NCBI RefSeq assembly: GCF_949628265.1
Contig: NC_088788.1
Span: 29,870,335 to 29,934,334 of the forward strand
Source of the DNA: Cloeon dipterum
Taxonomy: Eukaryota > Arthropoda > Insecta > Ephemeroptera > Baetidae
DNA: 64,000 nucleotides
Direction of reading: 5' to 3'
Below are positions 3,832-47,099 of this stretch, in pieces. The position numbers and the translations under genes were made by a program. The notes beneath the pieces were generated by a model. It saw nothing but the letters and a program-made list of their open reading frames with translations. It searched no databases and was not told the DNA's origin. The first letter of the stretch is position 1; every line of letters starts with the position of its first letter.

Positions 3832-6800
3832 TTAAAGAAGTGAGACGCTCTCATCAAGCAACTGCTGAAGTTGCTCCTGCTTGGTGACAGGCAACGAACA
3901 GGTGCTATTCTTACAGACGTAAGCACTCGCCTTACCATCTTTCAAGACTTTCATCTTTTTCACGGTTAGGTTCTTCTGATACAAAATGCCGTCTTCGTCA
4001 CCGTCAGCGTAGCCAAGAACTCTGCCAGGAATCAGTCGAGAGCGGATCTCTGCCAAAAGACGCTGCGCACTCTCGCTTCTTGGATCGCCAGTCACAACCA
4101 CCTTTGACAATCAATTTAGCTAATTAGCGTAACTTTTATCCGTCAGATATATGTGACTGATTCTTCAAACGAATATTTTACTTTAACAATCGCACTCGTG
4201 AGGCGATGTTCATGTTGTTATTTTTTCCCACACATTGCTTTCGACAAGTACAAAAGAAGACTTTTTAATTACAATATCCTCACGAACAAAAATAAATACT
4301 GCTATCATGCTGAACTTAGTGTTTGACCCATTTAGTTTAATACACGCAATGAAAACATAAATACCTGAGTAGGAGAGTCCTGGTACAGTAGGAGGGAGGA
4401 GCTCATTTCTGGAAGAGCCACAGGAATTTTCTCCAATCTCTGCTTAAAAGCGAGCAGAAGCTTTTCGGCCCTGTCTTCAAGATCTTCTCTTTCCAGCATT
4501 CCAGCGAGACGGATCAAATTGGATGCAGAAACTGAATTGCAGCTCGGCTCTGCACCGTCTTGTCCTGAAACACCGCGATTTCAATTCTTGTTACTTTCAT
4601 TTAGCCATAGGCGAAACTTTTAAATCAAAAAGTTGATTTCGAGAAGATTTTTCTGCAACCTGTATTTGATACCATGATTGAATGCTAGAGATACGCACAC
4701 AAATAGGCCCCAAGGCAATCTGAAACGATGAAAGCCAATTATTCAGCAGGCAGTACTGCTAACACCGATTGAGCGAGAAATGCAGATTGGAAGACTTTGT
4801 CTGCCGCCTGCTGACAATTTCCCTTGCTGACAGGCCGAGCGCACAATGCTGAAACGAGCGAATTTCCGGTCTGCTCGAGCATGTAGGCGCTAATCAAGTC
4901 TTGCTTTTGCGAGCCGAGGACCAATAATGCCATGGGGACACGACATGAGATATATCCACTCAGTCCACCTCTGCAATGCGGTTGGCGTGAACGGGAACGG
5001 GAGCACACGTGACGTCGCATACGTTCTATTGCTGAGTAATTAAACTTTGTTGCACCAGGGATGATTTTTATTTCATGGAAATTGCTACGCGTCTGAATAA
5101 CCTACCAGCTGCTTTTTAATTATCAGCGACCAGGGTACACGCGCGGGCGTGATAAGGGCTTGTTACAGTCTGCCTTGCTCCCTCAAGACCCATATGGTAT
5201 TGTCAAGAAGGAAAAGGTCAAACGCACGCGTGGGACACCTTATTTCAGCGTACGTGTAAAAACAACTTTAAATAGAAACCGAAATCATTAATTTTTTGCT
5301 ATACGTCAAAACAGCAATATTTCCCTTCGAAAACGGCAATCTTAGGCATTCCCCTCATATTTTATATTGAAAACGAAATCACACCCAGTTATTTTTATTC
5401 ATAAGTAGTGATACTTTCATTTAAGTTAAGAAAGAGTCAATATTATAAGACCTGATGAAACCTAGATTAAGGTTCTTGCTACTTTGTACAATCTAAACTT
5501 ATTTGATAACAAATAGAACGAAGCATGGAATAAATTACACAGCTATTTTATGTTGATTATGTGAAATAAAGTTGAGTTACTCGTCATGTTTCATTCAACT
5601 TGCTTCCACAGTTATGCTAAAACCCCTAAAATCGTAAATCAGTTCGGCTAATAGCCGTATATAGAAACGTGAGAAATATTTTTTTGAAATAAAACATCTT
5701 TCCCGACGATTCTATGGCGATTGGCAGGACGGAATTTTTCAGCACATCAAAATTAATAATTTAAAGAGCAGATTTGAGTCTCAAATCGTAGCGGAGTCGC
5801 ATTAAAATCGTAAGTATCCTCTGGCGCTATTTATTTTCACAATCAGCTTCAAACACTAAGGGGCTTGAGCAACTGGTGAATTCAGATATAATTTGGAAAA
5901 ACCTCACGATCTCTAAATTGCTCACTAATTATCGAGTTTTCCTGATACCTTAGTTGATCTCTAAACTTGAGAATCTTATAATTTTCCGGAAAATAACTGG
6001 TTTTCGTAAAATTTGATATTGCTAGATTTTATAGCTTGATCATGTTATAAACCATTGCTATTGTGAGAGAAATGTGATTTTCCATCAATATTGCTAAATC
6101 CAAAAATTCATTTTTATTGTTCCATTCAATAGAGGTGAATAAGTATAGCACCTTACACTTCTTTCTCAGGATATTTAACTCCCACACGCAGGCGTGACCA
6201 TTTAGCTGGCCTGCCTCAATTTTGTTTTATATTCGTGTCTCATGGTCAGAGCTCCACACTGGCGCGGACGGAAGTTACCCCATGTTAGAATCCAGTAAGG
6301 CAGGTAACGTTCTATTATTTGAATCTTTCTACAGTACACATTATTGGAAACTAAACACCTTAATGTTTAAGGTCTTTCTAGAAAACTGAACTCATGACGT
6401 GCGAAAGCCTAAAAAAATACAAAAAGTAATCTTAGTCTGTGTGAATCCCTTATGGTACCAACACTAGTGGAAATTTCCAAACACTTTATTTCCAAGAATA
6501 TTGAGCATTCCTCAAAGTACCATGAGTGATTTCAATCAAAATTGCCAAATGCGCTATTTCTAAGAATATTTAAGTAGCTACTGGGGAGTTCTTTCCTGCC
6601 GCCCGAATTAATGCCTGGGGCCTGGGTACGAAAATGTTGCAATGTACTTCTAAATAAAAGGCAAATCAGCTAGATTACTCCTGACAAAAGTTGCAATTGA
6701 CATATTATGCCTGTTTCTGGTTTTTATAATACAAGCGATTTGATTGCCAAGAAGTTATTGTCTACTAGCAGATTTGGCTCAATCAACGAATTTTAAGAAA

Positions 6801-9800
6801 TTTCCAACTGCAGCTTTCGGCGCTGCTTTTGTTATGCTTATGTTCAAAACTTTCTAATGCTAAATATTTTCCATGTGAATTTCCCTGAACAAAGATGCAC
6901 CCAAATAATCGTAATTGGCTCGCGGATGGTGCGAGCAATCTAAAGAATTTATAACTTATTTAAAATATTACTTTCTTAAAAAGCCAGGAAGAATGCTATT
7001 GCAAGCTTGAAAAGCTTCCTTTTTCTCGGCAGCTTATGTCATTTTCGATTTTGTTTTTCACCATAGAAAGTTGACGTTAATTTTTGTTCTGATATTTTGA
7101 ATTTTGAGAAAGCTTTCGATCGCGCAAGTCAAAATGATAGCAAACTTCGAGAAGATCTTCTTTATCTTATTGTGCTTAGGACCTGCAGGTATATATACAT
7201 TTTTTCTATAAATGTCACAACGCAATCCAAACATTTTTTTTATATTTCCAGTTCTAACTATTGACGAACTTTATGTATTGAAAGACCTTGAAACAGCTAA
7301 TGTGCTGCAGTGCTTACACAGCGGCCCTCAGGAAAAGACGGTCGGTCTGTCTTGGATTATCATGCCTATTGTTCCCCATTTGCTTGTTCATCAAAGTATA
7401 TATCCTAATTTTTCTTACACCTCACGTAAAATGTTTAAAAAGCTCCATCAATTTCAACCGCAGGCCTCAAAAGAATTTCAATGTCGACGACAAAGGTAAA
7501 ATTAGTTTAAAGACCGTTGAGGTTTTTATATGTATCGTTTTGTTGCAGGTCTTCAAGTTCCTTTCACACAGATTTACTGATAATAACTGGGTGAATATGA
7601 GGCGACATGCAGTTTCACACTTTGCTTTACCTCCAATTTTAGATGACAGATGGAATGGTAAATCTTAAAATTAGAGCATTATGTATTTTTAGAAATATTT
7701 CTTCCGTTTAAGACCTTCCAGAAGTAGAAACGAAACCCGGAAAAAATGTTAGGTTAGCTGAATTCCGCGACGAATTGCACTTCTCTGTTTTGGCTGAACA
7801 CAGCGCTCAATTCAATCTGACGCCTCATACTAACACACCTGAAATTTTGTTCCATTACGTCTTTACGCTTGACCCTACTAATGATCTTGGTACTTTGAGA
7901 GTGGAAATTTGCATGGTCGACTCGTGTTTTCTTAAGAATGTAGTAAAGGTAAATGAATATCAAAAGTCAAAAAGCCAAAACACTCATTCGGCGTTTTCAG
8001 GCCCAGAACGGACCACATACTTGAAAAATGGCTCAGAATGGGTGCACTTTACAATCAGAGTTAAAAAAGTCTTGCGGCCTAAAAAATTAATACCTGTTGA
8101 CTTGATGGACGCAAAAAGTGGGAAAGTTCTGTTCGATATCTCAATGATTAACTTCCTTCACTTATCAGCAGAAGTTTCAACCCTAAACTCCACTGGATAC
8201 TGAAAACCTCACATTAATGGGTATTTTCTTAAATCATGTGACCCGCAGCTTTAATTTATTTTTGCAGATGACGCTATAATTCATAGAGGCAAGGTTAATG
8301 AAAGTAGCATAACCGTTAATATGACTAACATGTTTTCTAACGTTCCTTGTTTGAGCATCCACTATTATTTCCGCGAAAGATACGGGGATGCTTTTGTTCA
8401 GACAGGTTCCTTGATTCGTTTAGAGTTATAACTATAATGATTCAAAGTTTGCGCTGTTAATTTAAAAACGATTTTATACTTTTAGCCTACAAACGGGAAG
8501 TGGAAGCGTTTAGCTTTACGATATGCCTCAAACAGGTCAAGCGAGGTGGAAGTAGTAACTTTCAAGTTGCCAATTGTAAATGCAAGACTAGAACATCACG
8601 TGTTTGCCCTTCACGTGCCATTCAAGACTTGTGGAGGGGAAGGTAAAGTATTAGCCTGATCATTTAGATTTTTTTCCATTTATATCTAGCTCTTTATTAA
8701 TTTGATTAACGCAATAACTTTTTCAATAGAATATTCCTATATTGATCTTCATGTGGGGGAAGAAGCGCTACCAGCCAAAATAGGTTGTCAAACCATTTCA
8801 TACGATGAAAACAAAACTTTTGCATTTACACACAAAGCTGTGTTGGAACCGACTTGCTCATCGCTCCAAGGTGCAGCTAAATTTTCTTGTTTGAATTTAA
8901 AGTAATTCCTTGCATTTAGATTGCTCTGGCGGCCATAGCTTTGGACGGTATTGCAATATCTCATGTTTACCATTTGTGACTGGAAGCGGAATTCAATGTG
9001 GAAAAATGATCCAGTGCAACAGAGAAAAATGCGCGTATCTTCCAGGGTACAATGCCAGTAGAAATGGCTTGGACAAATCCTGCAGTAAGTTACACCCAAT
9101 GTCTGTAAATTTAAATTCTAAAGCTTTTTCTTTAACATCCTAGCTTTAAATAATGAAACAGTAATTGATAATACTAAGCCCGTAGAAGAGAAGGATTATG
9201 AATACAATGAAGAAGAAGATTACAGTGTTGAAGAGGAATACGAGGATGAGGGAAATGAGATGGCAAAAAATTGGAAGAAGAAGAGATTAAAAATATAAAC
9301 AAGATGTTTTCAAATTTCTTGGATGAGTCAAAAAAGGGACAGAATGAAAAAGGCGGAGGCATAAATTGGATTTTAGTCATCCTTTTTACAACTTCTTGGC
9401 TCATAAGTATTGCTTCAGTGATCCTTTTATTTAAAGGAAGGCTTGATTTGATTACTGCATGCCTACATGCAGCCTATCTGCGCTATAGACACAGGTAGGA
9501 CCAGCAATAATATATGCTTTCAGGGCAACAACAAGAAGTTTCATTAGTCATGTACGTGGTGTCAGAAAGCTGTGTAGAAGTCTTGTTATTTGAGCAGTGA
9601 ACACTGAGCGACTAAAATATCTAATTTTAATATTGATATGTAAAAATTTGTTAATTTGTTCGATGGGTGAATTGATATAATAATATTAACAATTTTTAAA
9701 AAAAAAATTCTTATTGAAAAGACATATATAGGTTACTGTGCTAATAAATGACAATAAAGTATGAGAAATGTTTTTTTTTTATTATTGAGCACTCGTTTCT

Positions 9801-12800
9801 GACAACGGCACTACTTGATTCACTTCTATTGTTCTATCTAACACAATATGTACAAAAACATGATATCAAACGGTCTTGATATATTAATAAAATTTGGTTA
9901 ATGATATGGTCTGTTTTGCACTAACAGACATATAGTGAATATTATTTGGCGTATAGGTTCCCCACGATAAAGACTTAAATTTACTTAGGTTATAAAATTG
10001 TGTTACTAACCTTCTTTGAGGCGCAGTAATATGCTTGGATCCTGGGCAGTTGAGAAATAGCCAGCATCCTCATCATCCCAGAACTTCTCATCTTGCTTGT
10101 CTTGCAGCTCATTTGCCCAAGCGAGCCATTTAGAGTTGCCGCTGGCCTCATACAGGTCAAGCAGTCCTCGAATCACATAAGAATAGTCATCAGCAAATCC
10201 AGAAATCGGATCCTCACTAAAAAAACAATAAATTAATGATAGTACTTTTAAGTGTTAGTTACGCCTGGATAATTATTTTGCTTCCCTAGTTTATCATTCA
10301 TGTTTATTAAATTCATGATAGTTTGAAATTGAAAGTCAATCTTACGTTTGAGATAGAGCTCCCTTTTCGCCTTGATAGCAACAGCGGAGTAATGAGCCCG
10401 TTTCTTTGTTGTACATGTGCTCCTCCAAAAAATTAGCTGCTCTGATCGCTCTGTCTAAAATGCTGGCATCATCAGTCGCTTCAAAGGCTTTGCTCAGTCC
10501 AGAAAGCATTAATCCTGCACAGAATGCGCGCAATTAAGAACAATTTTCTTCTACAAAAACAGTTACACAAGAATTTTGTTTGATTCTTTGATCTAACGCA
10601 CTCTAACAGGAAGCATTTATGGCCATTTAATAAGAAAAAGATGTTAGGTTTAAGTTTTATAATAGTGCAAACAAATTAAAACATATTTTTGTTAGTTAGA
10701 GCCACTGAATATATTTTTTATTAATTTACGCTATCATAAATTACTCAAAATCTCATTAAAATAGATTTATACAGCCTGCTTTACACCGAGAAAACTGTAT
10801 TTCATTCAACTGAGTTCAAAACACTCCTCCTAACTCCTGGAGAAATGTTTTTGTCCATATTTTGATAAAAAAAAAATAGGCTTGTATTATAGTTTTTGCC
10901 ATGGTAAGATTTGTTCGGTTATAGTAAATGATTGAACCAGTCTAAAGCAGCGATTAAAGACAAAGTTGTTTTACATATTCATCCTTACTAAAGTGGTAAA
11001 AAGGTAAACAGCTAGAAATTAGCATCGACTGTAAACAAAACACGTTCAATTGAAAATCAATACTAACCATTCCACGCTGCAACCAACTTGTCATCAAGAT
11101 GCGGCCTAGGGCGATTCTGTCTTGATTCATGCAGAACGCTTTGGATGATTTTAAGTGCATTTTTCGTCTCATGAACTGTCAATCCAAACTTCTCTGCTGT
11201 TTCTTCCTCACTTCCATTTACTATCAGCACATTCTGGTTCTTCAACTCATCATGAGGATCCTGCAAGGACAAAAAATGCTCAGCAGGAGCTGTTGTTGAA
11301 CATGACACGCAATACCTGATTAGGATTTACATTTCCATTCATTCTGATATCGTAATGATGACATGCAAGTTCAAACAAGGTCACCGCACTGCCCTCTTTA
11401 GCAAATCTTGATTCCAGCAATGATTCAACTTCTTCGTGTGTCCAGACACAAAAGGCGCCTTCTCTTTTCTTTGGAGAGTCAAATCCTGGCAGCGAGTCTG
11501 CATCTTCAGCACTGAAGAAACCTCCAGACTATAAAGTAGCAGGGTGAATTCTTCTTTATTTTGAAGACAAAAATAATACTTACAGAGTGACTAAGATCTC
11601 TGCAAACGTAGGTGAATATGTCGTATATAATGTCGCGGAAGAATTCGTCTTTGCTCGCAACATACGCTTGGGAATACGAAACTAGCAATTGCGCTTGGTC
11701 ATAAAGCATTTTTTCAAAATGCGGAACATGCCACCTTTCATCAGTTGAGTAACGAGCGAATCCCTAAAATTTCAAGTAAAGGAAATTTCAAGTAAAGGAA
11801 ATTTCAAGTAAAGGAAATTTTCATCATGCAGTTTTAAGAGCTTACCTGAGAAATGTGGTCATGAATACCTCCTTTGGCCATCATTCTCAGAGTGTGTAAA
11901 CTCATGCTCAGTGCACTTCTTCCTTCAGGAGATGAAGGGCTTCGAGAGAAAACGTGAAACAAAAAGTTGAAGTTTGATGGCTGAGGAAACTTTGGCGCCT
12001 GGCTGAAGCCCCCATACTGATCTTCAAATCCAGACGAGAGTTGCTCCAAACACGTTTTCCAGCTCGCAGATGAAATTTCTTCTGAGTCCGAAATTTCCAT
12101 TTTTGACGTCCTTTCCAATATCTCCATTATCTTAGACCCTGATTCCAAGAAAGATTCTCTTTTTTCCCTCCACTGCAAAATAATTAGGGATGCATTCAAA
12201 CACCATGAAACAATCAATCATGACATGTTAGAGTGGACGACAAAGACCTGTTTGCTAATCTCCAGCAAAACGGATTTAAATCCAGTTTGGCCATAGTATC
12301 TATCATTTGGAGGGAAATAAGTGCCTCCGTGGACAGGCGAAAGGTTTGGGGTTAGCCAGATGCTCATCGGCCACCCACCGTTCCCACAGAACTCCTTAAA
12401 CAAAAAATATTCACCTGATTAGATAGACTTGTCAGAACAGTTTTGAATCCAGGTCGGCCGAAAGTGTTGTTGGGTGGGAAGTAAGTGCCACCAGCTATAG
12501 GGACTAGATCTGGGGTCAAGAATACGCTCATAGGCCATCCACCTCGACCTGAACTGGCCTGTAAGTATTTTTAGAGACTTCCATTTAACTAATGCAAGTC
12601 GATTCAAGTCACCTGGACAAAGGTCATGTAAACTCTGTCAACGTCGGGCCGCTCTTCTCGGTCCACCTTGATGTTGATAAACTGATCGTTCATGATGTGT
12701 GCAATTTCTTCATTCTCAAATGATTCATGCTCCATGACGTGGCACCAGTGGCAAGTAGAGTATCCCACAGAGAGAAAAATCAGCTTGTCCTGTTTGCGTG

Positions 12801-13405
12801 CTTCTTCAAAGGCTTCCTCGCCCCATGGATACCTTATTGCGTGAGTCAAAATTAGCAACATTTCCACAGATGCCCTGATTGTGAGCAGTAAACCATTGTT
12901 TCCCAAATTATTAATAATCTAAAAATGCTATATTCCAAAGGGTTGAAGTGACGGAGTTGAAGTTGAGGGAACGGCTCAGGCACTGAGTTTAATTTGATAT
13001 CTAAATAAATTCAAGCAGAAATATTATAGTTACCAGTCAACGGGATTTGCTGCATGCTGCAGCAAGTATGGAGACTTTTCTTTAGCCAGCCGATTCATTT
13101 TTTTGGTTGAGCCAGTTGCCATTTCTCTCACTCCAAAATTTGTCTTCTTGTCCTCTTTGCACAAACTGTAGGAGCGTACAAATAAGATTTTTTGACTCTC
13201 AAGTGCCCGTCATAACAACAAATTACCAGTTGATGTAATTTTTACTTGTTGACTGGTGGAAGTCGGCCCTGTGGGGAGTCTGGAGATAAGAACCTTTGCC
13301 GACGAACGACACTGCAGGAACCTTAGCTCGAATTAGGTCCTCGCACTGCAAAACACTTTTGGCCGCAACCCTGAAGGTGTTAGCAGCTCGCAGGGCGCCG
13401 TACAT
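3832..13405 (-). CDS. SPATA20: SPATA20 (thioredoxin-like DUF255 / six-hairpin glycosidase-fold protein), likely mitochondrial
   Basis: Exons in transcript order: 13405-13227, 13165-13034, 12832-12613, one of two alternatives (12558-12415 or 12394-12248), 12172-11846, 11763-11584, 11528-11316, 11260-11068, 10514-10346, 10216-10011, 4564-4365, 4101-3832. Frames join throughout, giving about 810-811 residues; human SPATA20 has 786. Near residue 85 is [19 protein letters not shown] and near 131-134 the thioredoxin-like CHWC motif followed by HVMEHESFE, then [13 protein letters not shown], all hallmarks of the family. The second half is the alpha/alpha six-hairpin domain with [20 protein letters not shown] and SAEDADS. 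The basic N-terminus from 13405 ([14 protein letters not shown]) looks like a mitochondrial presequence; the frame upstream lacks an ATG. Biochemical function in animals is not settled. One intron (4565-10010) is far longer than the rest and hosts another gene on the opposite strand. Confidence 0.93.
4565..7133. other. First part of the long SPATA20 intron, before the nested gene
   Basis: No exon is supported here on either strand. A patch at about 4730-5240 is richer in G and C and holds CACGTG at 5006-5011 running into TGACGTCG; an open frame on the minus strand there (4739-5020) resembles nothing I know. The rest is AT-rich and featureless. Confidence 0.5.
7134..9498 (+). CDS. Nested gene for a secreted or single-pass membrane protein, reading frame interrupted in this sequence
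   Basis: This gene sits inside a SPATA20 intron on the opposite strand. Exons with good splice signals: 7134-7188 (signal peptide, [14 protein letters not shown]), 7252-7395, 7464-7495, 7549-7657, 7713 to about 8203, from 8268 to about 8412, 8486-8642, 8730-8870, 8920-9084, 9144-9298. The middle is a beta-rich-looking extracellular region, then a Cys-rich stretch ([25 protein letters not shown]), then a Glu/Asp-rich linker. A membrane helix ([20 protein letters not shown]) lies in another frame at about 9366-9440, separated from the linker by a one-base shift at a run of six A at 9265-9270. Frames also fail to join near 7949-8000, 8200 and 8405. Either the gene is decaying or the assembly has small indels. 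I do not recognise the family. AATAAA follows at about 9755. Confidence 0.5.
9499..10010. other. 3' region of the nested gene and rest of the SPATA20 intron
   Basis: AT-rich, with polyadenylation-type AATAAA motifs near 9740-9760 in plus orientation that suit the nested gene. I see no exon. Confidence 0.5.
11767..11820 (-). repeat. Three perfect 16-base tandem copies next to a SPATA20 acceptor
   Basis: The plus-strand unit AAATTTCAAGTAAAGG is repeated three times without change, followed by a partial AAATTT. It fills most of the 82-base intron 11764-11845 and abuts the acceptor at 11764. In the transcript each unit reads CCTTTACTTGAAATTT, so the acceptor-side pyrimidine tract has been multiplied. 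Confidence 0.9.
12248..12394 (-). other. SPATA20: SPATA20 alternative exon, copy A (downstream)
   Basis: This exon has 147 bases and 49 codons, also phase 0 at both ends, and encodes [16 protein letters not shown] and [20 protein letters not shown]. It is the same protein segment as copy B with about 28 of 48 residues identical by eye. Its donor, CAG then GTCTTTG, is weaker than that of copy B. Only 20 bases separate it from copy B. Confidence 0.88.
12415..12558 (-). other. SPATA20: SPATA20 alternative exon, copy B (upstream)
   Basis: This exon has 144 bases and 48 codons, phase 0 at both ends. It starts after TACTTACAG and ends CAG before GTGAATA. It encodes the segment with [16 protein letters not shown] and [20 protein letters not shown], which follows the CxxC motif in the thioredoxin-like domain. 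The family has only one such segment in its usual sequence, so this is one of two interchangeable copies. Confidence 0.88.
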
Positions 13406-14950: not shown

Positions 14951-17900
14951 ATGCGTGCCCTAATAAACCAACTTATATTAATAATCACCACTGCCTATTT
15001 GGTGGTAGGCCAAAGCTCAGACAGCAACTCCACCAGCACCACGATCATTTACACTGCATCCTCAGATGGTAATTTACTTTTTTAATATTGTTAGGTATTC
15101 AAAAAAATAACATTTTCCCACTCACCGCAAAAGTGACGGCTACCAAAACTACACCTGCGCCTGAAATTGCAAAGCCTCTTATTGGAACATTGGATTCTAT
15201 CTTGAATAAAGCTCCAGTAATTCCCGAAGTCATCCCCGTTCAAGCAATTTCCGACCGGGTTCAAATAATGCCAGAAGTGTTAATTGCTCCAAACGCGGAC
15301 CCCTCTGCCGCGAGCAACAGTTCTAGCACAATTGCAGAGAGTCCGATAGTTAGCAGAAATAGGTGGAGGATACCACCACTTGGAAGCCCTGAGCCACTGC
15401 CTGACAGGGTGAATCCAATTTTATCTGCGGGACGAGAGGACCCGATGAAAATAAATCCAGTCGTGGACCCTATCGCACCCCAAGTGAAACCAATGATTAT
15501 GGTTCCACAACTGCCACCTCTAGTAGTTGAATTACATAACTCGTGGCTTTAAAAGATGGTATTTAAAAAATATTATACAGGCCGCAACGTCAACGGATGA
15601 GCTTCCTGATGACGTAAAAATGCTGAAAATGGTTGAGTCTCCAAACTTACAATAGCAAACTAATCATAAAATAACATATTTAATTCAGATGATCAAAAAT
15701 CGAGATGAAAAAATTAATTCTCTTATTGCTGATGTGAGTATAATAGGAAATTCTGAACGAATCTTGATTTGTTTCACAATGATCCCTTTCAATATAAAGA
15801 TGACGCAATTACAAGACAAATGCGACAACAAGCCCGGACCAATAGGGATAGTGAGTTTGTTTACACTTTGAAAATAAGTAAGCACCTACGGATGTCGCCT
15901 TTTACTACTCAATTTTATCAGATACCACCTGGACCGATTTGTCCGCCGCCGACTAATGATATGGGATGCTCAGTAGTAAGTTTTTAGACAGAAAACCTCA
16001 ATAATATTATTTATATATAACTTGAAACGTCAGTTTTCCCGAAGACTTATAATTACTTTTCAAGTATAAAAGACATTTATTTATGTTAATTTATTTTAAA
16101 CAATGGCACATAGTAAATATTTTCGTATTTAGTCAGTTGTTGTATAGTTTAAAGATTGCTAGAAAAAAATCATAAGTTGATCTAGTTAATCGATTTAAAT
16201 TCCCAGTTCTACGGATTTTGCAAAGACCTGCTGAAAAGGGGCTTTTCCAAAAACTTAATAAATAAATTAATTAATATTTCAAATATATTATTATTTGTTA
16301 GAATAAATTTTCTTCAATATAATTTTACTCATAATCCATGTGTATAGATTTTAGGAGCAAAAGATGATGAGATTCAAAATCTGAGAAAGCGGATGACTTA
16401 TCTTGAGGTACGTGACAGCTGCAAGCATTAAATTGTTTTTTAAATTGAGTTTTAATTAAACATTAAATACTGTGTCAATCCTCAAAGAACCTTGGAAAAC
16501 AACCAAAAAGGCAAATTGATGTATATATCCAAAAGTCGAAGCCGGTCAAAAAAGGAAAAGTAAATATTTTGCAACCACTCATATTCAAATATCAGCTTTC
16601 ATTAGTTCCAGACAAAATCATCCACTGCAAATCCATCCGCTGCTGATTGTGAAAGCGCTGTAATAAAAATATATGAATGCAAATTTCTTTGAATGGCAAA
16701 ATATTTATCATTTTAGCTTAATTATGAGAAAACAGTCACAACTGCTCTTCAAACAGGAGTATTATTAAACAAATTGGGCAAACTTTCGATTTCATGATTA
16801 TAATTTGCTATAGGTGATTGAAAGAGATGTTCAAATTACAAATTTGCAAGAATCCCTGAAGAACGCAGAGGAACGAGCTACTGTCGTATGGCCAAAGTGA
16901 AAAATTGTAGTATTATAACTTTGTGAAAATTTGCAGATCCAAAATAGAGAAATTAACGCTTGCAACTTAAAAGTAAAGCATGAACAAAATGTATGCTTTA
17001 AATATTTTACAAAATTAAACACTTATAGATGAAGCGTGTTGAGATGGACTTACAGATGTGCAAAGATAGAGTTCAAAATAATAAATATGTCTCAAAAAAT
17101 AGTGAAGATAGCGAAGACGATGAAGCTTCATACGATGATGAAGAAGGTAATATTTCTTGCCTTGGAGTTTCAATGAAATGAATACATATTTTTTCCAGAT
17201 GATGAAGACGATAGCGAAGATCCTGGAATCCGTTCTATTGTTTACAGACTTTTAATTTCATCAGGTAAAGTGCAGTCTTTATTGAACAGTCTGATTTAAA
17301 GTTTACCTTTCTCATTCTGCAGCTATTCAAAACAGACACCCATTCGTTTATTTTAACGGTTTCCCGATGAAGTTTAACAGGCGTTTTGAAAATAAAGTAC
17401 CAGTGATTACTTTGGGAAACAATGAATATTACTTCCAGAACAGTTCGAGGGTAGAGTATTATCATACGTGTTGTGCAATAAAAGGTGGAATAACATGTTA
17501 CTTTTTTCAATTGCTCCAGGTGAACTGGAAGGTTGCCAGTAATAATTGTGAAAAGCGTAATATGAAATTAGCTTCGATTGAAAGTGAAGAAGAAAGCGCA
17601 ATGATTTCTGCGAGTAGGACTCTTGCCCTGTTCTGTGTATATGGAGCAGTTATCTTTATTTTTGTTGGCATTCTAGTCATTGGCAACTCCAACTACAATT
17701 ATTGGACCAGTGGGCGCGACAACTACGGCAAAGGAGATTTCCAATGGAGCACAATCAAAAAGCAATTCAACTTCACAAACTGGGCTCCTGACCAACCGCT
17801 CAATGGTAATGAAGAATATATTAATTTATCATCAGATGATTCTTTTTACCTTTCATTTGATTAGGTGATCCAAAGAGACAATGCGTGTCAACTGGGCCAG

Positions 17901-22960: not shown

Positions 22961-25900
22961 TCAATAATCTTCTTTGAGTAGGAGAATGCTGTTGAAAATC
23001 TTCACAGCTTGTCCAATTTTAAAGCCAAGAAGCTCCACAAGGTCAGATTGGCTCAACATTAAAAAGGCATCCCCACTGATATTCTGTGATGTGAGAGAAT
23101 GTAAATTTAAATGTTTTAGATAATAGTAGGTAAGTACCTCTTCCACAAATTTTTTGGGTGTGTCTGCTGCTCCAAGTACTTGATCTGCAAAACTGCAAAC
23201 TTCTTCTGGAGTCCACTTCTTCACTCCATCAATACTCAAATCAAATTTGCCCTCAATCTTGCTCCAGTTAACCAGTTTAGCGTGAGTTGCTTTAGCCACT
23301 GGCATATTCTTCACTGAAGGAGCGTAACCTGGTCTGAATACTGACTCGTGCACATCCGAGCGAACTGATTGTGGGTTGATAGGCGGTTGAGCAGGCTCAA
23401 TTCCTCTCTTCTTCTTGTTGCGACCAATTGGAACCTCTGTTTGAGTATCCTCGGGAATTCCCAAAGTGGTGTCTTGCTCTTCCTCTTCGGGAACTTCTTC
23501 TTCCTCCAATTTCATCTCCACCTTCTCCACCTGCTTAAGCTTTGTCTCACTGTACCTGCAGAACCTAGCTTTGGCCAGGTTAGAGGTCGACAAAGGACAA
23601 GAGCCCATGTGTGGCAACACAAACTGGCTGTTTTTCAGAAGAGCGCGACAGCCTTGAGTGTAACACTGGTATTCAACGCCCGGGACTATCAAATTCAAGA
23701 TTTAGCATTTTTTCTAATTTAAGTCAAGTTCATGCTAGTTACCTGGTGGGGGACCAAGAGGGTGACCAGTTTTGTTGCACCATCCCATTGGGTGTATGTC
23801 TGGAGAGTCACTGTCCATCCAGGTTGAAGTTTCAAGCGGCCAGTTGTCAAAACCAATATGAAGCCTGCTGTTCCTGACTTCAAGAATGGAACCAACCCTG
23901 AAAAAAGGTTACAAAAATAGACAACATGTTGATATTGTTGATTGAGCATGGAAGTGAAAAATATCAATCAAAGATCTATCAATTTTCAAAATCAGTCCTT
24001 ACCGTATTAACTGTGGGAATCGTGGATCAACGCATTCTAATTTCATGCCCCTTTTAAAACCTAGGCTTGGTTTTGGCTTGAACGCTCTATGGGGCACGGC
24101 CTGACTTTTTGTTTCCCTCAGGTAATCATCCCAGTTGAATTCTCTGTATCCTGCAAAAAAGATAGTGATGCAGAGCAAATAAATTTAAGGCAAAAAGTGC
24201 ACCTTTAGGAGGAACCAATTCAATTCCAACAGATTCACACCAGCCGATGGGATGAATGAAAGTGGACGAAGGATCAACCCAATAATCGTATGTGTCATCC
24301 CATGAATCAAAGTGGATCAAAATCCTGCCACCAAGAATGTCTCTCACAGTGGAAACACAAACAAGTTCATGGTTGGATTTGTCCAGGGCTTCTAGTTTCA
24401 TTCCTATCCTAAAGCCACTGGGCCCAATCGTCTGCAAAACCAGCAAGTTAAAATTGACCATTTCAGAAGGCAGGTATTAAGACAGCTTACATTTTTGCTT
24501 GTTTGTCTGTGGACAAACAGGTTCCTTGGAGCAAGAGTGGCGTTTGTCGCCTTAACATAATGCGCCCAGTTGAACTTCTTTGATACTGCTTTTGGTGGAG
24601 ATAACTTCCGCGAAATCTTTTCGCAGTGCCCGGCTGGGAAGATGTCTTTGCTATCTGCATTTACCCAAAAGTCTGTTGAGTCGCTTGCGCCATCGATGTG
24701 CATCTTTACTCGAAATCCTGGAGTGACAGTTGATTCATATGAGTCAATATTTTCATTAAATTTTCGAATATAGCTGTGATTAGTGGTACTGATACTTAAA
24801 GTTTGACCAAATCATTGATTTTTCATCATCACACTAATTGAGAGAGCACAAGCCAAAGTGGTCAATGCGTGGGAAAAATTTAATTTGCACAAAATTGGTA
24901 AAAAAATGCTTAGTGAGCAAACTACGCACTTTAAAGTACTTCTTCAGGATAAAAGCCAAATTTCAAGTGTGTACCAATACAATAATTTATTTTTCTACGA
25001 AACTGTAATGATTGAATGGGTCTTTCCTATAAAACTTAAATTTACCTTTAGTAGAAACAACAGTCAGGACGACAAACTGAGCGGGCATCCTCGGGTCAAT
25101 GCCCTCTAGTTTCATTCCAGGCCTAAATCCATTTGCTCTGTCAGGAAAGCCACCTTCTTCGAAGAGTTTGGCTGGAGCTGCTCTTGTCTTCGTAAACTCC
25201 AAATATTTTGGCCACAAGAAATTCGGTGTGCGGTCAGTGTTAAAGTTAATCCATGGCATATCGTTAGGGTAACCCTGAAAATATAAAATCCATGGAAAAG
25301 ATAAATAATGATGACAAATAGTTCAGGCATGGAAACTCAATTGACTGACTACAAGTTAGAAAGCATTTTGGTCCTGACTGCAAGCAGACATCACATGGGA
25401 AATTTCACAACTCTATAATAGCAAAATTGCTTTTATTCCATATATTTTAATTGTTAGGATAGTATTGGGTAAAATTATTAGGCGCTCATTGATTAAACTA
25501 AAATATACATTGAAAAAAGGGGAATGTTTGAGATGTTTCCTGGCACATTTTAACATAAGATGTATTCATTTAACATGTAATAATTAAGCTGGTGAATAAT
25601 TAACACTTACCTCAGGATTTCTCGAGTCCTCATCTTGATCACTTACTGGGGTTGCAGAGGAAGAAGGAGCAGGCGAATTGGGCTCTGTGTTTGGCTTGCT
25701 GTCACCCGGCACGCTCTCTGCAGCACTTGAAGGAACCTCAGGATCTGGAGACTCAGGACAAGGCAGAGTTTCGCTAGTGCCTTCCTCGGAGCCTGTAGCC
25801 GATAATGTCCACTTAGAGACGTCGATTTTTTTCAATTCCACCTCAGCTGCTTCTGCTTTACTTTTTTCCTTGCGATCCATTTCCTCCTGTTCCTTCTTCT

Positions 25901-38965: not shown

Positions 38966-39830
38966 TTATTTTTTTAATATAACTGTTCTCAATGGAGTAA
39001 CATTGACTAAATACTTGGAGAAGTACCTTACAGATGCCCCCAGCCTTGAAGATTCTTCGTCCTCCGGCTCAACGTGCGTCAGAATGGCCAGAGCCAACGT
39101 TTTATCGTTCCTGTTTAAGTTAATCAGCCATGAAACTGTTTTTTTCCTTAAAAATTTAATATCACATACTTATCTGAGGATTTGAACAGTAACCATTGTA
39201 AAAGGCATTGAACCCTCTTCACATTGCACGCCAAACTAAGCAGCACACTGATGTCATCAATAATAATATTAACATGCGAGTATCTTTCATGGAGGTTGCG
39301 GATACTAATTTGAACAGTCTGGTAGATCCACTCAATGATGCTGTCGTCCAACTTTGGAGATTTGCATTCACGAACACTTCCTTGGGTTGCTTGAATGACA
39401 TCGATGAACTTGACCTGCTGTTTGTCTATGTGGCTTTTCAAATTAAAGCCAATCTGGTTCCCCACATATTGATAGTGGCTCTGAGGATGCATTAGGGCGA
39501 CAAAGCAGACAGCCTCTTTGTTCTTCAGAGCGTGGTCCACTACCGTGCTCAAAATGTGGTTGCCGTGACTGTTGTTTCCATTCTCAACAATGCCAATCAT
39601 CTTTCCAATGTGCTGATCTCTTTTCTGCAGCTCCATCTGCACCGAAATAAAACTCTCTTTTGGCTTCCTACAAAATTAAGACAAGTGTTGAAAATGTAGT
39701 TCCGCACATAGTGTTTTTAAGAGTTAATTAAATATTGAAGATATTATTTAAGTCCATAAGTCCCACAAGTTTGCTTCTTTTTTAAGTAAAACAACAAAAA
39801 ACAAGTTAAAGATAGAACTTACGAGTCCAT
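38966..39830 (-). CDS. ELP6: Elongator complex protein 6
   Basis: Three exons: an 8-base first coding exon (39830-39823), 39667-39170, and 39110-38966; 216 residues. The blocks VCFVALMHPQSHYQYVGNQI, QQVKFIDVI and INLY-like HVNIIIDDISVLLSLAC, then LALAILTHVEPEDE, match ELP6 (human VCFVALIQSFSHYSIVGQKL, VLLVDDLSVLLSLG). ELP4, ELP5 and ELP6 form a RecA-like hexameric ring that, with ELP1-3, modifies wobble uridine in tRNAs. ELP6 lacks Walker motifs and none is seen. The stop codon overlaps an AATAAA. At 216 residues the protein is about 50 shorter than human ELP6 (266), all missing at the C-terminus; either a further exon was not recognised or the tail is short here. The tiny first exon is supported by a good donor (ACTC then GTAAGTT) and frame. 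Confidence 0.82.

Positions 39831-45593: not shown

Positions 45594-47099
<1,506 letters not shown>

What the first reader, a model, noticed from the sequence alone, without database searches (positions are those of the whole stretch)
12248..12558. Mutually exclusive exon pair in SPATA20 with only 20 bases between the copies
Two adjacent exons (144 and 147 bases) encode the same thioredoxin-domain segment ([22 protein letters not shown]) and share phase 0 at both ends. The gap from donor B to acceptor A is 20 bases, GTGAATATTTTTTGTTTAAG, shorter than any intron the spliceosome can remove, and the branch point for copy A must fall inside or next to copy B. Using both would therefore be sterically blocked, which enforces a choice. 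The copies differ right after the CHWC motif, so the choice would change the surface around the redox-like site. I know of no such pair described for this gene.
Basis: partly seen in the sequence, partly recalled or inferred. Interest (0 to 1): 0.8.

Follow-up and report, generated by a model that had tools for sequence, protein, structure and literature searches.

The report
Either-or exon pair in SPATA20 gene
An insect-like gene for a thioredoxin-fold protein (SPATA20) carries two old, diverged copies of one exon packed only 20 bases apart, so the cell can probably use one or the other but never both, giving two versions of the protein beside its redox-like site; no RNA data were available to prove it.

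Summary
On the minus strand lies an intact 11-exon SPATA20 gene (13122..3832). Between two constitutive exons sit two homologous exons, both phase 0/0: B (12558-12415, 144 nt) and A (12394-12248, 147 nt), 20 nt apart. They share 28 of 48 residues, are saturated at synonymous sites (pS 0.79, dN 0.36), each alone passes the Thioredox_DsbH cutoff, and each keeps family-typical residues the other lost. Both look like old, constrained coding exons, not an assembly duplicate. Ordinary animal splicing should not join B to A: the gene's shortest introns are 54-55 nt, and the best branch-like sites for A's acceptor (TTCTGAC, -38; TCTAATC, -25) lie inside B, upstream of B's donor. Retaining the 20 nt leads to a stop. 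Best reading: mutually exclusive exons enforced by overlapping splice signals, an extreme form of the known steric class. Caveats: no transcripts or related species could be examined; A's donor (CAG|GTCTTT) is the weakest of 11; branch-like matches inside B arise in 52% of synonymous recodings. No RNA-structure signal was found.

The parts
12613..12832 (-). constitutive exon upstream (encodes CHWC redox-like motif), donor CAG|GTGACT
   Evidence: in frame with both copies; Pfam PF03190 match spans it
12559..12612 (-). 54-nt intron upstream of copy B (pyrimidine fraction 0.53 at -20..-4, CTCTAAA branch-like site at -13)
12415..12558 (-). copy B, 48-aa exon ASSGRGGWP...SLSNQ, phase 0/0
   Evidence: (51.3 bits vs cutoff 27)
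12431..12437 (-). candidate branch site TTCTGAC inside copy B, branch A at -38 from A's acceptor (best score)
   Evidence: consensus match only
12417..12423 (-). candidate branch site TCTAATC inside copy B, branch A (12419) at -25 from A's acceptor, 4 exonic bases before B's donor junction (second score)
   Evidence: consensus match only; 52% of synonymous recodings also carry a CTRAY at -18..-40
12409..12417 (-). donor of copy B, CAG|GTGAAT
12395..12414 (-). 20-nt spacer GTGAATATTTTTTGTTTAAG: donor of B at one end, T-rich tract and AAG acceptor of A at the other
   Evidence: retention gives 16 shifted codons and then a stop
12248..12394 (-). copy A, 49-aa exon EFCGNGGWP...EISKQ, phase 0/0, with a cysteine not found at that column in 82 homologs
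   Evidence: (47.1 bits vs cutoff 27)
12242..12250 (-). donor of copy A, CAG|GTCTTT, weakest of the gene's 11 donors
   Evidence: (recalled insect-like weight matrix)
12173..12247 (-). 75-nt intron between copy A and the next constitutive exon
11846..12172 (-). next constitutive exon, begins with Trp in phase 0

Best explanation
A and B are mutually exclusive homologous exons of an insect-like SPATA20 gene, and the choice is enforced by overlapping splice signals. When U2 and U2AF engage A's acceptor they use a branch site inside the last codons of B (my choice is TCTAATC at 12423-12417, for its distance; TTCTGAC scores slightly higher) and the T-rich tract that follows B's GT. B's donor is then covered, B is skipped as part of a 218-nt intron, and A is used. 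When U1 takes B's donor, or the 54-nt intron before B has been removed, A's signals are no longer available and B is joined to the next exon across a 242-nt intron that includes A. Joining B to A would need removal of 20 nt, which animal spliceosomes are not known to do (recalled); leaving the 20 nt in shifts the frame into a stop. B is probably the default and A, with its very weak donor, the form that needs help. Shown here: anatomy, phases, constraint on both copies, the frameshift. Inferred: branch site, exclusion in vivo, which copy is default. The protein consequence (inferred from homologs) is a swapped GGWP loop, two strands and most of the following helix of the thioredoxin-fold domain, with an extra Cys in form A.
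For: Exact anatomy and shared phase 0/0. Complete gene open in both versions. Both isoforms (first 580/581 residues) match PF03190 (259.1 and 253.9 bits) and each exon alone passes the cutoff of 27 (51.3 and 47.1). Saturated synonymous but restrained amino-acid divergence: pS 0.79, dN 0.36; 0 of 20000 null simulations. Against 82 homologs the commonest residue is kept by both copies at 22 of 48 columns, by B only at 6, by A only at 4, by neither at 16; of the 13 columns conserved in 75 or more of 82, both copies keep the same 12 and both changed the thirteenth (counted), chance about 4e-4 if the 20 changes fell at random. Shortest introns 54, 55, 55 nt (the 54-nt one is the intron before B). 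The three top branch-like sites for A in the range -12 to -59 all lie in B. Retention of the gap gives a stop. In an AlphaFold2 model of a homolog (pLDDT 95.5) both exon ends fall inside helices (90-104 and 139-152; exon = 102-149), an arrangement for which skipping is held highly unlikely to give a folded protein and tandem presence of similar copies unlikely (PMC5740500, passages).
Against: No RNA evidence. A's donor scores -2.1 against 1.0 to 7.1 for the other 10 donors, and 24% of all GT sites in the window score as high or higher, so A may be rarely used or failing. A has drifted further from the family than B (69 against 99 bits on the homolog profile). Branch-like matches inside B are expected half of the time by chance. 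The pyrimidine fraction of A's acceptor (0.65) is ordinary for this gene (0.47-0.76). No related species could be examined to see whether the pair is kept.
Confidence: 0.78

Rival explanations
1. Copy A is a dying exon: an old duplicate whose donor has weakened, so that nearly all mRNA carries B and A is now just part of a 242-nt intron.
For: A's donor CAG|GTCTTT is the weakest of 11, and 24% of all GT sites in the window score at least as well; A fits the family profile less well than B.
Against: A is open, in phase, keeps 12 of the 13 most conserved columns, keeps four family-typical residues that B lost, and its divergence from B is strongly biased against amino-acid change. Loss of use would have to be recent.
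Confidence: 0.13
2. The pair is mutually exclusive, but the choice is governed by competing RNA base-pairing (docking and selector sequences) as in insect Dscam, with crowding only secondary.
For: This mode is known in insect clusters (PMC6071210, PMC3923563, passages).
Against: The region folds no better than shuffles (z 0.08, 51 of 100 shuffles as good); the best ungapped pairing between the two flanking introns is matched by 385 of 500 shuffles, those with the gap by 73 and 479 of 500. One sequence only, so covariation was not testable.
Confidence: 0.05
3. The two copies are an assembly or haplotype artefact.
For: Near-adjacent duplicates are a known kind of assembly fault (recalled).
Against: The copies differ at 59 of 144 aligned bases while each stays in phase with its own splice sites; haplotypes do not differ that much (inference).
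Confidence: 0.01

Closest known systems
Steric-interference mutually exclusive exons (alpha-tropomyosin; human OGDH exons 4a/4b; 57 of 629 human clusters; Drosophila Dscam exon 17 as cited)
   Same: Two exons whose joining is prevented because the upstream donor and the downstream branch site are closer than about 50 nt (PMC5740500, PMC7969005, PMC6692369, passages). The Dscam exon 17 paper is not held; only its citation was seen.
   Different: In OGDH there is an intervening intron with branch adenines 25-41 nt downstream of the donor. Here the predicted branch adenine is upstream of the donor, inside the coding part of the neighbouring exon, and the 20-nt spacer is itself no likely intron. 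Branch site not mapped.
C. elegans unc-32 exons 7a/7b
   Same: One member is thought to be skipped by default because of weak splice sites (PMC3585155, passage).
   Different: There the intervening intron carries a binding site for a neuron-specific regulator; here no regulator site was recognised (no GCATG in the 54-nt intron, the gap or the 75-nt intron).
Drosophila Dscam, Mhc, 14-3-3zeta clusters
   Same: Insect exclusive exons encoding versions of one protein segment.
   Different: Reported to be regulated by competing RNA structures (PMC3923563, passage); none detected here.
SPATA20 / Thioredox_DsbH (PF03190); solved relatives 3IRA and 7TKV
   Same: The protein is a plain member with CHWC and GGWP.
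   Different: The family-typical segment exists in two alternative versions.

Membership tests
Homologous mutually exclusive exons (criteria of Pillmann et al. 2011, PMC3228551) | Exons of about the same length (default difference up to 20 aa) | tested here: met
   48 and 49 aa; criterion read in passages
Homologous mutually exclusive exons (criteria of Pillmann et al. 2011, PMC3228551) | Compatible splice sites and same reading frame, no in-frame stop | tested here: met
   GT and AG at all four sites, phase 0/0, gene open with either copy
Homologous mutually exclusive exons (criteria of Pillmann et al. 2011, PMC3228551) | Sequence similarity | tested here: met
   28 of 48 identical; tblastn E 4.8e-16 in the window
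Homologous mutually exclusive exons (criteria of Pillmann et al. 2011, PMC3228551) | Transcripts contain exactly one of the two | not testable with these tools
   No RNA data and no eukaryotic collection at hand
Steric-interference class of mutually exclusive exons | Upstream donor and downstream branch site closer than about 50 nt | tested here: met
   The whole spacer is 20 nt, so any branch site at usual distance from A's acceptor lies in B or its donor; the particular site is only predicted
Steric-interference class of mutually exclusive exons | Branch point mapped by experiment and exclusion lost when spacing is enlarged | not testable with these tools
   Needs lariat RT-PCR and minigenes
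Docking/selector RNA-structure class (Dscam-like) | Complementary sequences that pair competitively, supported beyond chance | tested here: not met
   single species, so covariation was not testable
SPATA20 / Thioredox_DsbH family | PF03190 domain above its curated cutoff, with CxxC and GGWP | tested here: met
   259.1 / 253.9 bits against 27; CHWC 57-60, GGWP ending at residue 112

The most novel reading that the evidence does not exclude
The last codons of exon B double as the branch site of exon A, so one short sequence is read either as coding sequence plus donor, or as branch site plus polypyrimidine tract: an either-or splice switch with no intron between the exons at all. The swap replaces the loop before the (recalled) cis-proline of a thioredoxin-fold domain and adds a cysteine next to it (aligned to T104 of homolog L001, six residues before the proline), giving two forms with different redox or partner behaviour.
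Probability: 0.3. Interest if true: 0.75.

Novelty: new variant of a known kind. Interest (0 to 1): 0.52.

Why it matters
If transcripts confirm it, this is a compact natural case in which exclusion is hard-wired by overlap of a donor, a branch site and a polypyrimidine tract, without an intron between the two exons; it would let the steric rule be tested with very small changes in a minigene. It would also be the first homologous exclusive exon pair reported for SPATA20 as far as the searches made here show (open-licence papers only, mostly seen as listings), in a protein whose domain Pfam lists as of unknown function and which is listed as important for sperm head-tail linkage in mammals (PMC12539209, passage). 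It would point to the GGWP loop as the place where the protein's specificity is tuned (inference).

Tried and rejected
RNA-structure control: whole-region fold and pairwise complementarity against shuffles showed nothing. A third copy: tblastn of both copies against the window gave no further significant hit. Selection on the branch site: rejected as evidence, since 52% of synonymous recodings of B carry a CTRAY at -18..-40 and 30% at -22..-28; 3 of the gene's 10 other acceptors have one at -18..-40, against 7.9% of 7194 AG sites in the window. Another donor for A: of three GT sites scoring above -2.5 between 12400 and 12171 only 12247 is in frame. The pair in relatives: no eukaryotic collection exists here. 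The viral-contig scan with a domain carrying B gave 7 loci, of which only L081 and L082 cover the exon segment, there within an uninterrupted reading frame; the scan with A gave none. Rfam on the window: nothing at gathering scores. U12-type splicing: donors and acceptors were inspected by eye only, none resembles U12. Of the 87 loci, 83 gave a domain and 82 were long enough to keep; L084-L087 gave none and L083 was too short. The structure alignment used 30 of the 80 genome loci; L038 was dropped for a stop in the chosen stretch. The donor weight matrix and the branch-site weights are recalled approximations, not fitted to this species. The fly gene name CG8613 used is recalled; its two papers were seen as a listing only. 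Papers: passages, plus one whole section of PMC6131778; none read whole. The three papers holding both 'SPATA20' and 'mutually exclusive exons' mention SPATA20 once each: in the skipped-exon part of a human table (PMC6131778), as an alternate-acceptor event (PMC6999693) and in a gene list (PMC5352146).

Full report
Observation. The minus strand from 13122 to 3832 holds a complete SPATA20 gene. I assembled it by reading frame, family resemblance and splice consensus into 11 exon positions, and both versions read through to one stop. Between the exon ending at 12613 (which encodes CHWC, residues 57-60) and the exon starting at 12172 lie copy B (12558-12415) and copy A (12394-12248), with GTGAATATTTTTTGTTTAAG between them. 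Both copies start and end in phase 0.

Both copies look like real exons. They share 28 of 48 aligned residues and 85 of 144 bases; third codon positions match at 18 of 48, first and second at 32 and 35. By a Nei-Gojobori count pS is 0.79 (saturated) and pN 0.29 (dN 0.36). If the 59 differences were scattered at random, the mean identity would be 15.3 residues and none of 20000 trials reached 28; 78% had a stop. Each exon alone scores above the Thioredox_DsbH cutoff (51.3 and 47.1 against 27) and both isoforms score alike (259.1 and 253.9). Against 82 homologs (of 87 loci fetched) the commonest residue is kept by both copies in 22 of 48 columns, by B alone in 6, by A alone in 4 (including an Arg found in 61 of 82), by neither in 16. 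Of the 13 columns conserved in at least 75 of 82, 12 are kept by both and one was changed by both. A is the more diverged: 69 against 99 bits on that profile, and 12 of 82 homologs are closer to B than A is. So the duplication looks old, and A has long been under constraint.

Splice signals. Donors: B has CAG|GTGAAT, second best of 11; A has CAG|GTCTTT, the worst of 11 by a recalled insect-like matrix. Acceptors: A's has a T fraction of 0.65 at -20..-4, second highest of the 11 scored, though its pyrimidine fraction (0.65) is middling; B's has fractions of 0.35 T and 0.53 pyrimidine, on the low side but not unique. So B has the better donor and A the more T-rich tract. The two best branch-like sites for A, TTCTGAC at -38 and TCTAATC at -25, both lie in B's coding sequence. 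Adenines in the spacer outside the acceptor itself are at most 17 nt from its end and fall in or beside B's donor (seen in the sequence). The nearest AG upstream of A's acceptor is the last AG of B, three bases past the TCTAATC adenine and too close to it to be a likely acceptor (inference). Such a branch-like motif is not by itself remarkable: 52% of synonymous recodings of B have one.

Why both cannot be used together. The intron before B is 54 nt; introns elsewhere in the gene are 55, 55, 82, 129, 201, 263, 553 and 5446 nt; using B removes 54 + 242 nt, using A 218 + 75 nt (and coordinates). All are inferred introns. A minimum 5'SS-branch-site spacing near 50 nt is reported for human splicing, with assembly abolished at 35 nt on one substrate (PMC6692369, passage), and the same limit defines the steric class of exclusive exons (57 of 629 human clusters, PMC5740500; OGDH, PMC7969005; passages). 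If the 20 nt were kept, translation runs 16 residues in a shifted frame and stops. If both exons were skipped the frame would survive but 48 or 49 residues would be lost.

Protein side. An AlphaFold2 model of a homologous domain (L001, 30-sequence alignment, mean pLDDT 95.5, pTM 0.89) matches 3IRA, 7TKV and, more weakly, thioredoxins. In its numbering the alternative exon covers residues 102-149: the end of helix 90-104, the GGWP loop (107-110), strands 111-115 and 121-125, and most of helix 139-152. Both ends lie inside helices, a feature that Hatje et al. take to make a skipped form highly unlikely to fold, and they hold tandem presence of similar copies unlikely too (PMC5740500, passages). 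That the proline of GGWP is the cis-proline of thioredoxins is recalled knowledge. The five residues before GGWP differ at four (ASSGR against EFCGN); the Cys of A is found in none of 82 homologs at that column. A redox role for it is speculation.

Control of the choice. No sign of competing RNA structure was found, nor an RBFOX-like GCATG in the 54-nt intron, the gap or the 75-nt intron; one TTGTT each lies in the gap and the 75-nt intron and one TCTTT at A's donor, which is little. The likely default is B, because the 54-nt intron before it is of this gene's short class and B has the better donor; A would need a helper for its weak donor. The unc-32 exon 7a case is described in such terms (PMC3585155, passage).

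What is known. Homologous exclusive exons and their steric enforcement are established. I found no paper on a homologous exclusive pair in SPATA20; most of those papers were seen only as listings, and the mentions checked concern a human skipped-exon event, a human alternate-acceptor event and a gene list. In the passages I saw of papers none describes a pair whose branch site lies inside the partner exon. The library lacks most subscription papers, and the Drosophila prediction databases could not be opened, so such a prediction may already exist there.

Verdict. Observation confirmed; interpretation supported as the best inference from sequence, pending RNA. It would be an extreme member of the steric class.

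Noticed in passing
window 4565-10010 (-) intron 9 of SPATA20, with plus-strand ORFs at 7288-7668 and 7775-8203: The 5.4-kb intron 9 appears to hold another gene on the opposite (+) strand, starting near 7.1 kb with what looks by eye like a signal peptide and ending near 9.5 kb. Two of its ORF pieces have no Pfam match at E 0.01.
   Followed up: partly
window 23738-25322 (-): Four pairs of segments about 36-45% alike that look like MBT repeats of an L(3)mbt-type chromatin gene (the name is recalled, not tested with Pfam).
   Followed up: partly
window 11764-11845 (-): Intron 4 of SPATA20 ends in a threefold tandem of a 16-base unit (TTTCCTTTACTTGAAA-like) that repeats a pyrimidine tract and a branch-like CCTTTAC at -46, -30 and -14.
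   Followed up: no
window 45594-46037 (-), 39148-39642 (-), 17367-17864 (+): Coding stretches of a class I tRNA synthetase (tRNA-synt_1b), an ELP6 homolog and a C-type lectin (Pfam).
   Followed up: no
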